Source of the DNA: Tannerella sp.
GTDB taxonomy: Bacteria; Bacteroidota; Bacteroidia; Bacteroidales; Tannerellaceae
Assembly: GCA_031283785.1 (NCBI GenBank)
Contig: JAITBC010000390.1
Coordinates: forward strand, 1 to 6,580
Reading direction: 5' to 3'
DNA: 6,580 bases
Position numbers and translations under genes: made by a program. The notes below the pieces were generated by a model that saw only the letters and a list, made by a program, of their open reading frames with translations, had not been told where the DNA came from and did not search any database. Positions 1 to 6,393 of the stretch are shown piece after piece; positions within the stretch are counted from its first letter, which is position 1, and the number at the start of each line of letters is the position of its first letter.

Positions 1-407
1 AATTTATTGGCATAAGTCAAAATGTTTTTGGTGTAACTGGTTTCAAACACGCCTTGTTCCCAAAGCCTTTTTGCACCCGATTCGCCCAAGTTGTAAGCCA
101 TTAAAACCTTGGCGGGGTCATCGTACTTTTCAAACAATCCGCGCAAAATGTACAAACCAGCCCGAATGTTTTGTGTAGGGTCAAGGAAATCATCAACCCC
201 GATGGCTTCGGTCATTACGCTTGCGAGCGATGCCGTGAGCTTGTCGGGTTCAGCCACACCCAAGCTGACCGTGAGCGAGTGTTGGCTGTCCGCGTCGATT
301 AGTAGCGTCCGCTTGCCCTGCCTTGCAAGCCCGAAACCGAGACTTGCGGTTGTCATTGTCTTCCCAACGCCGCCTTTCCGTGTGCCGATAAAGATTGTTC
401 TGCCCAT
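1..407 (-). CDS. Chimeric ORF: ParA/Soj ATPase N-terminus joined in frame to a lytic transglycosylase (SLT) C-terminal segment; partial at the window edge
   Basis: Read leftward from ATG at 407-405, the frame stays open for 135 codons to the window edge. It is preceded by a strong AGGAGG site about 8 nt upstream. Residues 1-65 look like a ParA/Soj partition ATPase: the deviant Walker A motif KGGVGKT is at residues 11-17 and LLIDAD at 35-40. From about residue 69 the protein no longer resembles ParA. DPTQNIRAG (76-84), KVLMAYNLGE (100-109) and RLWEQG (114-119) are typical of the C-terminal half of SLT-type peptidoglycan lytic transglycosylases, as found in conjugative elements. The ParA dimer/DNA-binding part and the SLT catalytic Glu region would both be missing, so neither activity is expected. 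Natural candidates are a deletion joining two genes of one element, or an assembly chimera. Both family calls rest on recognised motifs; the start is well supported. Confidence 0.75.
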   Translation of the reverse strand, partial: MGRTIFIGTRKGGVGKTMTTASLGFGLARQGKRTLLIDADSQHSLTVSLGVAEPDKLTASLASVMTEAIGVDDFLDPTQNIRAGLYILRGLFEKYDDPAKVLMAYNLGESGAKRLWEQGVFETSYTKNILTYANK

Positions 408-472
408 TGAGGCTTCCTCCTTTGCGGTGCGGAACTTCTCGCTGATTTGACGCTCGGCTTTTTAACGATGAA

Positions 473-526: not shown

Positions 527-578
527 AGAACCATCCGGCTCAAACCCTTAATATATGTGGGTTTTACCGTTTGGTTCT
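527..578. repeat. Long imperfect inverted repeat at the end of the recombinase cassette; possible terminator or element-end signal
   Basis: AGAACCA (527-533) pairs with TGGTTCT (572-578), a CCGG/ACCG-type block pairs internally, and AAACCC (542-547) pairs with GGGTTT (559-564), around an AT-rich loop. On the minus strand the structure is followed by AATTTTAT, so it could end the recombinase transcript, although the T-run is weak. It covers the last codons of the recombinase C remnant and lies exactly between the recombinases and the ParA-like gene, so it could also be a recombination or end sequence. I cannot decide between these. Confidence 0.5.
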
Positions 579-825
579 ATTATATCACAAGCCTCAAGCC
601 GCCAAGTCTTGCTGTTGTCGGTGTCACGCAGGTAGCCGTATGGGATTGCGCTTGTGACGTGCTTGCCCTCGTGCGTTCGGGCGGTGTTAATCGCACGAAT
701 TTTTCTCTGTGCAGCAAAAAAGATATTTGCATTTAACCCGATAACCAAGCCGTTTGTTACACATCGTCCAAATTCCCGCAAAAGCAAACCGTCCGAACCA
801 ATGTCCGGGCAGTCACTCTGTTCAT
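548..825 (-). pseudogene. Remnant of a third large serine recombinase (recombinase C)
   Basis: The first ATG (825-823) overlaps the stop of recombinase A as ATGA, the translational-coupling arrangement typical of tandem recombinase genes. It begins MNRVTA, a usual start for these proteins, but the frame stops after 22 codons (757). Another frame, about 711-548, reads RKIRAINTARTHEGK followed by PYGYLRD and KTWRLE. That is the segment joining the long catalytic-domain helix to the Recombinase domain of TnpX-like large serine recombinases. Nearly all of the catalytic domain is gone between these pieces, and the protein ends soon after KTWRLE, at a TAA (550-548) inside an inverted repeat. Intact relatives have roughly 500 or more residues; here about 75 codons' worth of sequence survives. 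It cannot be active. The identification rests on a short but characteristic motif run and on its position after recombinase A. Confidence 0.7.
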
Positions 826-2432
826 GCGAAATCTCCCGTCACCGACACGCCGCCTTTGAATGTAATCTCCACAGTTTTATCATTCCGCACGAGTATCCGC
901 TCCGCAAGATGCCGTGTCAGCACATCGTCATATTCAGTCAGAATATGCTGGTTTTCTTCGAGCAGTTTCAGCACTTCCCGCATTGATTCATCCGCTTGAT
1001 TATCAGCTTTTCTCCGTGATTTCTCAGTCGTGATAAAATCCCGCAGTGCCGATATGTCGTCTGAAAGCTGTTTGAATTTTGATGTGTATTCCGTTATGTC
1101 AATCCCCGCCGCACACTGCTCCGCCAATTTTTTAGTTTCATTCTGCAGCGCAATTATTTGATTTTCAGCGTTGGCAATCACATTATTATCATCACCACCG
1201 ATTACATCTTTGAGATTGGTTTTTAATATTTCCGCAACCTCGCCTTTGATTTTGAAGAACCTGTTCATCGAATCAACAATTGTTTTATGAAGCTGTTCTT
1301 CGTTAATCGTAGGCAATTTCTTGCAGTATTTTTTCCCGCTCTCAAGCCGATTTATGCATCTCCACACTATGGTTTTTGCACCTTTTTGTGTCCAAGTTAC
1401 CCGCCGGTACGGTGTGCCGCATTCTGCACATCGTAGTAATTCTGTTAGCGCGTATTTTGCACTGTATTTGCCGTTTTGGTTTTGTGCTTTTTTGTGACAA
1501 CCGTCCTGCTGTTTCGCCGCACGATTTCAGATTGCACCTTATCAAAAACATCTCTGCCGATTATTCCAATGTGATGATTTTTAATTAGGTACGTCGGCAG
1601 TTCGCCGTGATTTTTTCTCACTTGGTGCGATATGCAATCCGCCGTGCATGTTTTTTGCCGCACAACATCTCCGGTTAGCGTGTCATTTTCGAGTATCCTT
1701 TTAACAGTATTTGAGTTCCGGTTTAAGTCGCCCTGCTTGGTCAAAAATCCCTTTGCAATCAACTCCGCAGCGATTTGTCGTTGGCTTAATCCGTCAAGAA
1801 ACCGTTTGAATATAAATTTGATTGTTTCGGCTTCTTCGGGGACAATTTCAGGTTTTCCATCCGCGCCTTTTTGATAACCAAGCAGATATTTATAATTCAA
1901 ACTTACCTTGCCTTGACGGAACGCTTCACGCTTTCCCCACGTCACATTCTGAGAAATTGATTCCGATTCCGCTTGTGCGAAACAGGCGAAAAGTGTGAAC
2001 ATCATCTCGCTTTTGGTATCGTCAAGCGTGTTCAATTTTTCTTTTTCGAATATAATCGGTATTCCGAGCAATTTCAGTTCACGCGCATAATTCAAACTAT
2101 CGACCGTATTTCGTGCAAACCGTGATATTGGTTTAGCAAGAACAATGTCGATTTTTTTCCTTTTTACAGGCTTTTATCATACTCAAAAAGCCTTGCCGTT
2201 TGCTCACTTGCGTTCCCGTAATTCCGTCGTCTTGGAAAAATTTATACAATTTCCGGTTCGGATTTTCGCTTACTAATCGGTTAAAGTGTGATGACTGAGC
2301 CTCAAAACTGTTTTCTTGGTCGTCAAAATTCGTGCTTACACGAATGTACACTCCGATTGAACGCTGCCCTTTTGATTCACTTTTTTCAGTTTTGGTCGGC
2401 GGTATCACAACCACTGTCGGCATATTTTTCAA
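822..2432 (-). pseudogene. Large serine recombinase (recombinase A), broken by two compensating 1-nt frameshifts
   Basis: Large serine recombinases cut and rejoin DNA at attachment sites through a serine nucleophile. TTG at 2432 with GGGGAG 6 nt upstream is the likely start. The first frame holds YIRVS with the catalytic Ser at residue 33, then DDGITGT. It breaks in an A7 run (T7 at 2152-2158 on the plus strand) and stops at 2133. Dropping one A lets the next frame read KIDIVLAKPISRFARNT, the conserved SRFARN helix, and then the Recombinase domain (2150-1475). A missing base near 1474-1477 leads to a stop at 1445. Adding one restores KYSAKYALTELL, a zinc ribbon beginning CAEC (about residue 334) and WRC, a coiled-coil-rich tail and the stop at 822. 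Net shift is zero, giving about 536 residues, a normal family length. All catalytic and zinc-binding landmarks survive, so the breaks are recent or are sequencing errors. It follows a small gene by one base. Confidence 0.88.
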
Positions 2433-2721: not shown

Positions 2722-4120
2722 TTACCTAAATTTCTCCGTAAATTTGATACTGCAGAGCAGTTCAAATTTCGCTTGATTATGCGGTTTGAGCGCTATCCCG
2801 GTCTAATGTTGGCTGACATTCAATTAACCGCATATCAATCACATTTGACTGCTCTTGATATATCACTTCGTCAATTATATCTTGCATTTTCAGCTGTGAA
2901 TAAGCGTGGTGTTGTTCACGCAATTTTGCAATTTCAATCTGTATACCGACAATGGCTTTGTTGTCAGATTTGTTTGCCGTATCTAACATTTCAAGCTGCC
3001 GTATTGCCGTGTGCAAAATATGATTGTTTGATTTTAGTTTTTTCACCACTGTTATAAATGCCGCAGTCAATTCTGTTTCACCATAACTTTTCTGTTCGCA
3101 ATCATCACAGTTATCGTAATATTTGGCCCCACCAACGCTTTTCCCGCAGTTATATCTAATCGTTTCACGGCAGTTAGCTGCATAAAAACTGCGGTTGGAA
3201 TTTATGCAGAAAACTTTTTGCTTAAACGGTGTCTGTAAACTTCCGTCACCTTTTGTATCGCCCCTGTTCCGCATCACATTTTGCACCTTGTCAAAAATTT
3301 CTTTGCTGACAATCGGCTCGTCGTGATTTTTAACGCAGTATAATTCCCGCTCACCTTTGTTGGTTTTGTAAACTTGGTTTTCGGTATAATGTTTGCCGAG
3401 AAATACATCGCCGTAGTAAACTTCATTTGTTAAAATTCTGCGGATAGCAACATTGCGCCATATTTTATCGCCACTCTGATTTAATTTGTCGGCAATTAAA
3501 TGCGTTCCGATTCCGTTTAGGTACATATCGTAAATTTGTCGCACTATCGCGGCTTCGGGTTCATAAATTACGAATTTCTTATTCTCTTTTCTAAATCCAT
3601 ACGGCACAGTTCCAATGTCAAAAGTGCCGTCTATCATCCGCTTTTTCTGCCCCCACTGCACATTTATTGCGATTGATTTGCTTTCTTCCTCGGCGAATAT
3701 GCTGTAAAACGTCAGCATCATTTCGCCGCTCATTACGCCTGTGTCGAGTTCCTCTTTTTCGAAATAAACGCTGATTCCGAGCGATTTTAATTCACGCAGT
3801 ATGGTTAGACTTTCTTTCGCGTTCCGTGCAAATCTACTGACCGATTTGGCGTATATTCTGTCAATTTTTCCTTTTCGGCAATCGGTCAGCATACGCTGAA
3901 ATTCCTCGCGGTTGTCAGCTTTTGTTCCGCTCTCGCGGTCGGCGTAAATCTCCGCTAATTGGTACTTCGGGTCAATTTTGAATTTGTCTGTGTATCGCTG
4001 AATTTGTTTTGTGTATGATTGTGACTGCTCATTTTCTTCGTTACGTACCCGGCAATATGCGGCAGATTTTCTGATTTTTTCGTTATTTTTGTTATCTTTG
4101 ATTACAATAACTTCCGACAT
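2722..4120 (-). pseudogene. Large serine recombinase (recombinase B), with catalytic Ser replaced by Arg and a damaged C-terminus
   Basis: ATG at 4120 follows GGGGTG by 5 nt; the frame is open for 447 codons to 2777. The order is family-like: resolvase catalytic domain (about 18-165, with KSVSRFARN), Recombinase domain (about 170-290, with VPYGF and a helix-rich segment), a zinc-ribbon region (about 300-350) and a coiled-coil-like tail. Two key residues are altered. The motif expected as YCRVS reads YCRVR, so the nucleophile position is Arg26 (codon 4045-4043, one base from AGT Ser). The first zinc-ribbon pair reads CINS, with Ser308 where Cys is expected. After the stop at 2777 another frame, ending at 2722, reads FELLCSIKFTEKF, which resembles the usual last strand of this family; about 50-60 residues before it seem to be missing. 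The protein may fold but should not cut DNA by the normal route. It heads the recombinase cluster. Confidence 0.87.
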
Positions 4121-5359: not shown

Positions 5360-5818
5360 ATGAACGAGATAAAAAAGCCTGTGGGCGAAAAGATTGAAGA
5401 GGCGCGTGAACTGCTCGGGTTGTCGCAGCGTCAGCTTGGGGAGATGGTGGGTGTGTCCGCCCGAACTATTTATTCCTACGAGATTAAAGGCGCGAAACCG
5501 CGTCCGTCTACGCTGAGGAAACTTGCGAACACGCTTAAAGTGTCTACAGAATATCTTGAGCGTGACGATATTGATGACCCGCTGTACGGTATGGAGCGGA
5601 AAGAGGATATGGATGCTGTCCGTGAGAAGTACGGCAATAAAACGGCGCGGGAACTCGATTTTCTGCTTGAAAAGAACTTGGCGTTGTTCGCGGGCGGCAC
5701 GGTCAGTCAGTCCGCAAAAGACGAATTTTTCCAAGCTGTGATGCAGGCGTATGTGTTAAGCAAAGACAGGGCAAAAGAGAAATTCGGTCATCGAAAAACT
5801 GACGTACCTGATGCGTAA
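5360..5818 (+). CDS. XRE-family helix-turn-helix repressor (ImmR/CI-like immunity repressor)
   Basis: This intact 152-residue cytoplasmic DNA-binding protein starts at ATG 5360, with GAGGT 6 nt upstream. Residues about 8-67 form an XRE helix-turn-helix: ARELLGLSQRQLGEMVGVSA, then RTIYSYE, then LRKLANTLKVSTEYL. The C-terminal part (LALFAGGTVSQ, DEFFQAVMQAYVLSKDRAKEKFG) is helical and of the type found in Clostridia mobile-element repressors that are followed by an ImmA-like protease. In ICEBs1-like systems ImmR represses excision and transfer genes and is inactivated by ImmA cleavage; the same pairing is seen here. It is transcribed rightward from a perfect promoter, 23 nt ahead of the protease gene. 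It should bind the inverted repeats at 5273-5337 to hold the leftward promoter off and may regulate itself. Unlike almost all its neighbours, it shows no damage, which may mean that immunity is still maintained. Confidence 0.88.
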   Translation: MNEIKKPVGEKIEEARELLGLSQRQLGEMVGVSARTIYSYEIKGAKPRPSTLRKLANTLKVSTEYLERDDIDDPLYGMERKEDMDAVREKYGNKTARELDFLLEKNLALFAGGTVSQSAKDEFFQAVMQAYVLSKDRAKEKFGHRKTDVPDA

Positions 5819-5841
5819 ATGAAGTTGCGGAGGTCACGGAA

Positions 5842-6393
5842 TTGTATAATAATTTGAATAAAATCATCCAAAAGGTGAAATCTGTCAAGAAAATTTATGA
5901 CGGAAACAGCCCGTACAGACCGGCTGAAGCGTTGGATATAGAAGTTCTGTATTTTCCGTTGGAGGATTTGCGCGGATTCTTCACTAACTTCAATAGAGTA
6001 AAGATCATCACGTTGAGTAATAAATTGGACAAATGGGAACGACACTCGGCTTTATTTCACGAAATCGGGCATGCCTGCATACATGAAAAAGAGGTGCTTG
6101 ATATGCCCGGCGCGGCGGCGTTTCTGCAAAAAACAAGCCGCCGAACACGAGTACGAGATTGAGGCGAATTACTTCTTTGCCGAGATGCAATCAGCGATGA
6201 TGACTTGCTTGAAGCGTGGAGTGATGTGGATTATTTTAACTTTTTCAGTTTTGCGAAGTCTTTTAGTGTGCCGCCGGATATCCTTGCTTTGAAGTATAAA
6301 TTGATGGAGTATAAGGGATATAGCGATGTTCCGAAAGTTCCGATTGTTCCGCAAGGGGATTGTATGGGGCGGGAACGGTTGTTTTATGATTGA
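5842..6393 (+). pseudogene. ImmA/IrrE-type zinc metalloprotease, broken by two compensating 1-nt frameshifts
   Basis: The start is TTG 5842 with GGAGGT 7 nt upstream; no ATG is available nearby. This family cleaves the partner XRE repressor upon induction. The first frame holds ALFHEIGHACIH with the HExxH zinc motif at residues 73-77. It shifts at an A6 run (6128-6133) and would stop at 6162. With one A fewer, the next frame reads QAAEHEYEIEANYFFAEM, the second conserved helix of the family, which supplies the third zinc ligand (Glu). A missing base near 6187-6190 then returns the original frame, ISDDDLLEAWSDVDYFNFF to the TGA at 6393. The net shift is zero and the restored length is about 183 residues, typical of the family. 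As written, only the first 106 residues would be made: they keep HExxH but lose the third ligand, so no cleavage is expected. Placement after the XRE repressor strongly supports the identity. Confidence 0.87.

What the first reader, a model, noticed from the sequence alone, without database searches (positions are those of the whole stretch)
1..407. In-frame ParA ATPase / lytic transglycosylase chimera
Seen: one uninterrupted frame with a good ribosome site begins with ParA Walker motifs (KGGVGKT, LLIDAD) and switches, between about residues 65 and 75 (215-185), to the C-terminal half of an SLT domain (DPTQNIRAG, AYNLGE, RLWEQG). Known: ParA and SLT proteins are separate proteins, both often encoded by conjugative elements. 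Inference: a deletion fused two genes of one element exactly in frame, or the assembly joined two loci. A real fusion would put a peptidoglycan-enzyme fragment on an ATPase N-terminus with neither catalytic centre complete; I know of no such architecture. The two families may share a short D-rich stretch at the junction.
Basis: partly seen in the sequence, partly recalled or inferred. Interest (0 to 1): 0.72.

Follow-up and report, generated by a model that had tools for sequence, protein, structure and literature searches.

The report
Probable assembly chimera at contig end
The odd ParA-plus-cell-wall-enzyme gene is really in the sequence, but it joins the start of a DNA-partition gene to the end of an apparently phage-type gene, only about 200 bases from the end of a contig, and is most likely a sequencing or assembly artefact and not a new protein.

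Summary
In detail: one open frame (407..3, minus strand, ATG, good ribosome site, no stop before the window edge) starts as ParA and ends as the C-terminal part of an SLT transglycosylase. DNA similarity passes from ParA to SLT relatives at about 212-200. 'Two genes of one element' is not supported: ParB follows ParA in 6 of 6 loci with an unbroken ParA; the SLT half matches phrog_19349, and of 56 viral-contig loci 42 carry an SNF2 helicase and 0 carry ParA or ParB. In the 4 genomes checked, no ParA match shares a contig with the SLT gene. The junction is ~200 bases from the end of what is listed as a 6580-base contig, and no match that I could see repeats it. In a related genome two contigs end in this same ParA stretch with exactly 119 identical bases, equal to the k119 in one contig name. 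Neither half keeps its catalytic segment. Composition differs between the halves, but it is the ParA half that departs from the window. Best reading: chimeric read or mis-join; second: a unique real rearrangement. Reads would decide.

The parts
416..423 (-). ribosome-binding site AAAGGAGG, 8 nt before the ATG
   Evidence: read; DNA similarity to some ParA relatives also covers 16-21 nt upstream of the ATG
200..407 (-). 5' part of a parA gene (residues 1 to about 69): Walker A KGGVGKT and LIDAD, no IDTAP (Walker B-like) segment
   Evidence: Pfam AAA_31/CbiA, phrog_164, 73% protein identity to L001 over 1-81, DNA 67-77% to the closest relatives
200..212 (-). junction zone: ParA similarity ends (212; 201 in L006), SLT similarity begins (200)
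   Evidence: blastn ends; GC3 split best at codon 70, weak
3..199 (-). 3' part of an SLT-domain gene (residues about 70-135), cut by the window edge
   Evidence: phrog_19349, Pfam SLT, 80% identity to P0003 residues 142-212, DNA 77% to L113

Best explanation
A chimera made in the laboratory or the computer: at about 200 bases from the end of this contig, a parA gene start was joined, through a chimeric read, a library chimera or a mis-resolved overlap, to the 3' end of an unrelated, apparently phage-type SLT gene. The frame stays open because the join is in the sense strand and happens to be in phase; no fusion protein exists in a cell. Shown: two halves, sharp switch, position near the end, no second copy seen, different usual neighbours. 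Inferred: that the join itself is not in a genome.
For: Junction ~200 bases from the end: the database copy P0001 is listed with 1 contig of 6580 bases, the window length. Of the 120 listed of 1228 protein matches only P0001, the window itself, carries both domains. No listed match joins the halves in 391 genomes of the class of G001 (203 with any match, list cut) or in the loci; five that seemed to span (L008, L010, L016, L021, L046) match ParA only and not the SLT. Usual neighbours differ: ParB follows in 6 of 6 unbroken ParA loci; of 56 viral-contig SLT loci 42 have the SNF2 helicase, 47 at least one of helicase, exonuclease or VRR-NUC-like gene, 0 ParA or ParB. In 4 of 4 genomes the two lie on different contigs. 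GC 58% versus 43% and GC3 46/69 versus 32/66 codons (Fisher p 0.038). In G003 two contigs both end about 82 codons into parA with exactly 119 identical terminal bases, equal to the k119 in the title of one (L003): this stretch is a branch point where an assembler stopped.
Against: No reads were available, so the join is not shown to be false. Relatives share only scattered letters at the junction, far fewer than an assembler k-mer, so a plain k-mer mis-join is unlikely and a chimeric read or loose overlap must be assumed. Composition does not mark the SLT end as foreign: its GC3 is like that of five other minus-strand frames of the window (p 0.80), while the ParA half, continuous with the body, differs (p 0.0011). 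The change-point gain is small (2.6 log units). Different contigs in draft genomes are weak evidence of distance; in G004 the SLT match begins 238 bases from a contig end. SLT loci from genomes (L152, L216, L112) showed none of the three phage markers. ParA starts followed by other residues occur elsewhere (P0009, P0049, P0076), and L008 has a broken ParA without ParB well inside a contig, so real breakage of such genes happens.
Confidence: 0.7

Rival explanations
1. A real but unique illegitimate recombination in one cell lineage: an SLT gene end, from a phage or prophage, was joined to a parA start at an element border with several serine recombinases, leaving a dead fusion gene.
For: The flank holds serine recombinase genes, one in several frames, and a weak recombinase-like remnant at 548-787. 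Some related parA genes are decayed or cut short away from contig ends: L009, L012 (one stop), L008. The SLT end has the base composition of the rest of the window. Codon-level resemblance at the junction could serve microhomology joining.
Against: No second example of the junction seen; it sits at the very end of the contig; no ParA or ParB in any of 56 viral-contig SLT loci.
Confidence: 0.24
2. An in-frame deletion inside one element that carried both parA and an SLT gene.
For: Sense orientation and open frame; conjugative elements can carry SLT proteins (recalled).
Against: phrog_19349 match and phage-type neighbours in most viral-contig loci; 0 of 56 loci with ParA or ParB within the held flanks; different contigs in 4 of 4 genomes. 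A viral collection is a biased set for this test and draft contigs are a weak one.
Confidence: 0.04
3. A functional ParA-SLT fusion protein of a new architecture.
For: Open frame with a good start site.
Against: IDTAP (Walker B-like) segment and SLT catalytic Glu both absent; no relative seen.
Confidence: 0.02

Closest known systems
ParA partition ATPase followed by ParB (and in three loci a DUF3991 protein) in MAGs titled as Clostridia-type bacteria (PF13614; phrog_164)
   Same: Residues 1-69: start, Walker A, LIDAD; 73% identity over 1-81 to L001
   Different: Stops after about a quarter of the protein; no IDTAP segment; no ParB in the window
phrog_19349, SLT-domain protein with an N-terminal hydrophobic stretch, found in viral contigs (PF01464)
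   Same: Residues 65-135 match the C-terminal third, 80% identity to P0003
   Different: The N-terminal part, the invariant Glu115-Ser116 and the GLMQIN segment are missing
Chimeric contigs of metagenome assemblies
   Same: Two unrelated gene halves, abrupt switch, close to a contig end, single occurrence
   Different: The read evidence that normally proves this was not available

Membership tests
ParA/MinD ATPase | Deviant Walker A KGGVGKT | tested here: met
   translation; Pfam
ParA/MinD ATPase | Walker B-like segment (IDTAP at residue 129 of L001 and L002) | tested here: not met
   the window frame has left ParA by about residue 70
ParA/MinD ATPase | parB downstream | tested here: inconclusive
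   present in 6 of 6 unbroken relatives and the ParB query found nothing in the window, but the contig ends before any downstream gene could be seen
SLT transglycosylase | Catalytic Glu (E115-S116 in P0003, invariant in 22 aligned rows; that it is the catalytic one is recalled) | tested here: not met
   window residue 70 corresponds to P0003 G147
SLT transglycosylase | C-terminal AYN.GE segment | tested here: met
Assembly or library chimera | Each half continues through the junction at other loci | tested here: met
   in relatives, not the same strain: L001, L002, L005 (ParA) and L113, L114, L004 (SLT)
Assembly or library chimera | No reads support the join | not testable with these tools
   no reads held

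The most novel reading that the evidence does not exclude
A real recombination fused the 5' end of an element's parA to the 3' end of a phage SLT gene, giving a short P-loop protein with an SLT tail that might still bind nucleotide or the partition machinery without hydrolysis.
Probability: 0.02. Interest if true: 0.45.

Novelty: not a real feature. Interest (0 to 1): 0.08.

Why it matters
Mainly as a caution: in at least one related genome the parA 5' end is a repeated stretch where contigs stop, and a chimera that stays in frame looks like a new domain architecture in a protein database, where this one is listed as P0001.

Tried and rejected
Single-element deletion: tested through the neighbours of both genes and judged unlikely. 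Apparent spanning matches: L008, L010, L016, L021 and L046 match ParA and not the SLT; 34 of 3629 plasmid records cover at least 80% of the query, of which the 7 listed have 30-36% identity and are annotated ParA, RepA or AAA ATPase; the other 27 were not seen. Homopolymer reading: the two frame changes of the recombinase 2432..822 fall at or near T runs (2152-2158; 1488-1493), which suggests consensus errors but may be true decay. DNA comparison with plasmid and phage records gave one and two records, short matches only. Papers: two searches, listings only were seen; no listed title or abstract start names a ParA-SLT fusion; no paper was opened. No structure prediction was run, since it would not tell a real join from a false one.

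Full report
What is there. The minus-strand frame 407..3 has an ATG, a good ribosome site read from the sequence, 135 codons and no stop before the window edge. Residues 3-79 match AAA_31/ParA and residues 67-114 match positions 56-103 of 117 of the SLT profile. PHROGs give phrog_164, ParA-like, at 1-72 and phrog_19349 at 64-134.

Where it switches. DNA similarity to parA relatives ends at window 212 (L002, L003, L157), 234 (L001) or 201 (L006, 67% identity); similarity to SLT relatives begins at 200 (L113, L114) (blastn ends, so within some bases). ParA relatives L001 and L002 and SLT relatives L113, L114, L115 and L004 continue through the equivalent place. P0003 has IGVDDFLDP as the window does, so the junction is most likely just before residue 70 (inference). 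The ParA part has 58% GC and G or C at 46 of 69 third positions; the SLT part 43% and 32 of 66 (Fisher p 0.038); a one-break fit is best at codon 70 with a small gain of 2.6. Against a simple reading, the SLT end has the third-position composition of five other minus-strand frames of the window (p 0.80) and the ParA half is the one that differs (p 0.0011).

Where the halves belong. I put 15 ParA loci into. Six have a ParA match that reaches residue 257 or more without a stop (L001, L002, L005, L006, L007, L011; stops checked), and all six have a ParB match downstream (the ParB query is from L005, so that one is a self match; Pfam ParB_N confirmed for L001 and L005). Three of the six also show a DUF3991 protein (L001, L005, L011). 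L012 has one stop inside parA and a partial ParB. L008 has a ParA cut at about residue 147 and no ParB match although 6 kb follow. L009 is decayed, with no ParB match in the 1.2 kb that remain. The other six (L003, L010, L013, L014, L070, L157) reach a contig end within 0.5 kb of the ParA start. The fifteen are those I chose from the 80 loci, plus L157. The SLT half belongs to proteins of 210-237 aa (the database rows; the search had an upper length limit near this) with an N-terminal hydrophobic stretch and an invariant Glu115-Ser116. In L113 the gene lies between an SNF2 helicase and HNH, endonuclease and exonuclease genes of phage families. Of 56 viral-contig loci, 42 hold the SNF2 helicase, 45 the VRR-NUC-like gene, 32 the exonuclease, 47 at least one of the three, and 0 ParA or ParB at E 1e-5. 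A viral collection is biased towards that answer. In genomes, the SLT gene (E 1e-20) is in 3 of 391 genomes of the class of G004, G004 itself included; the loci L152, L216 and L112 showed none of the three marker genes, so their phage nature is not shown. In G004, G177, G328 and G005 (distant SLT match) the ParA and SLT matches lie on different contigs. These are drafts, so this is only weak evidence of distance.

Is the join real? P0001, the database copy of this frame, is listed with one contig of 6580 bases, so the window appears to be a whole contig and the junction is about 200 bases from its end. Among the 120 listed of 1228 matching proteins only P0001 has both domains. No match listed or 43 joins the two; five that seemed long enough are ParA proteins without SLT similarity. 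In G003 two contigs stop about 82 codons into parA and share exactly 119 terminal bases, equal to the k119 in the title of one of them: this stretch is a repeat where an assembler stopped. Some short database proteins also show a ParA start followed by other residues (P0009, P0049 and P0076); whether these are artefacts, frame errors or decay was not tested.

Against this: I have no reads; the shared letters at the junction are few; the neighbourhood has several serine recombinase genes, one in several frames; and related parA genes do decay.

Function, if any. The ParA part has the P-loop but ends before the IDTAP segment; the SLT part lacks the invariant Glu. I expect no enzyme activity from either (inference).

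Verdict. A probable chimera, 0.70; a real but dead and unique junction is the main rival, 0.24.

Noticed in passing
window 822-2432 and 2777-4120, minus: Two serine recombinases in tandem, recalling the three neighbouring recombinase genes of Ruminococcus albus plasmid pRUMAL02; the one at 822-2432 changes frame twice, at or near T runs.
   Followed up: partly
window 548-787, minus: Weak recombinase-like remnant (best E 2e-4 in plasmid records) between the parA start and the recombinases.
   Followed up: partly
window 5360-6393, plus: XRE-type regulator followed by a gene with a Peptidase_M78 (ImmA/IrrE-type) match whose reading frame appears interrupted.
   Followed up: no
L003 5987-6248 and L157 15630-15891: Two contigs of one genome end in the same parA stretch with exactly 119 identical bases.
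   Followed up: yes
P0009, P0049, P0076; L013 6001-6294; L008 6001-6441: Other parA starts followed by unrelated residues or cut short: decay, frame errors or further chimeras.
   Followed up: no
L113, L115, L159-L212: SLT-domain proteins (phrog_19349, function unknown in PHROGs) often sit beside an SNF2 helicase and nuclease genes in viral contigs; why a peptidoglycan-type enzyme would sit there is not obvious.
   Followed up: partly
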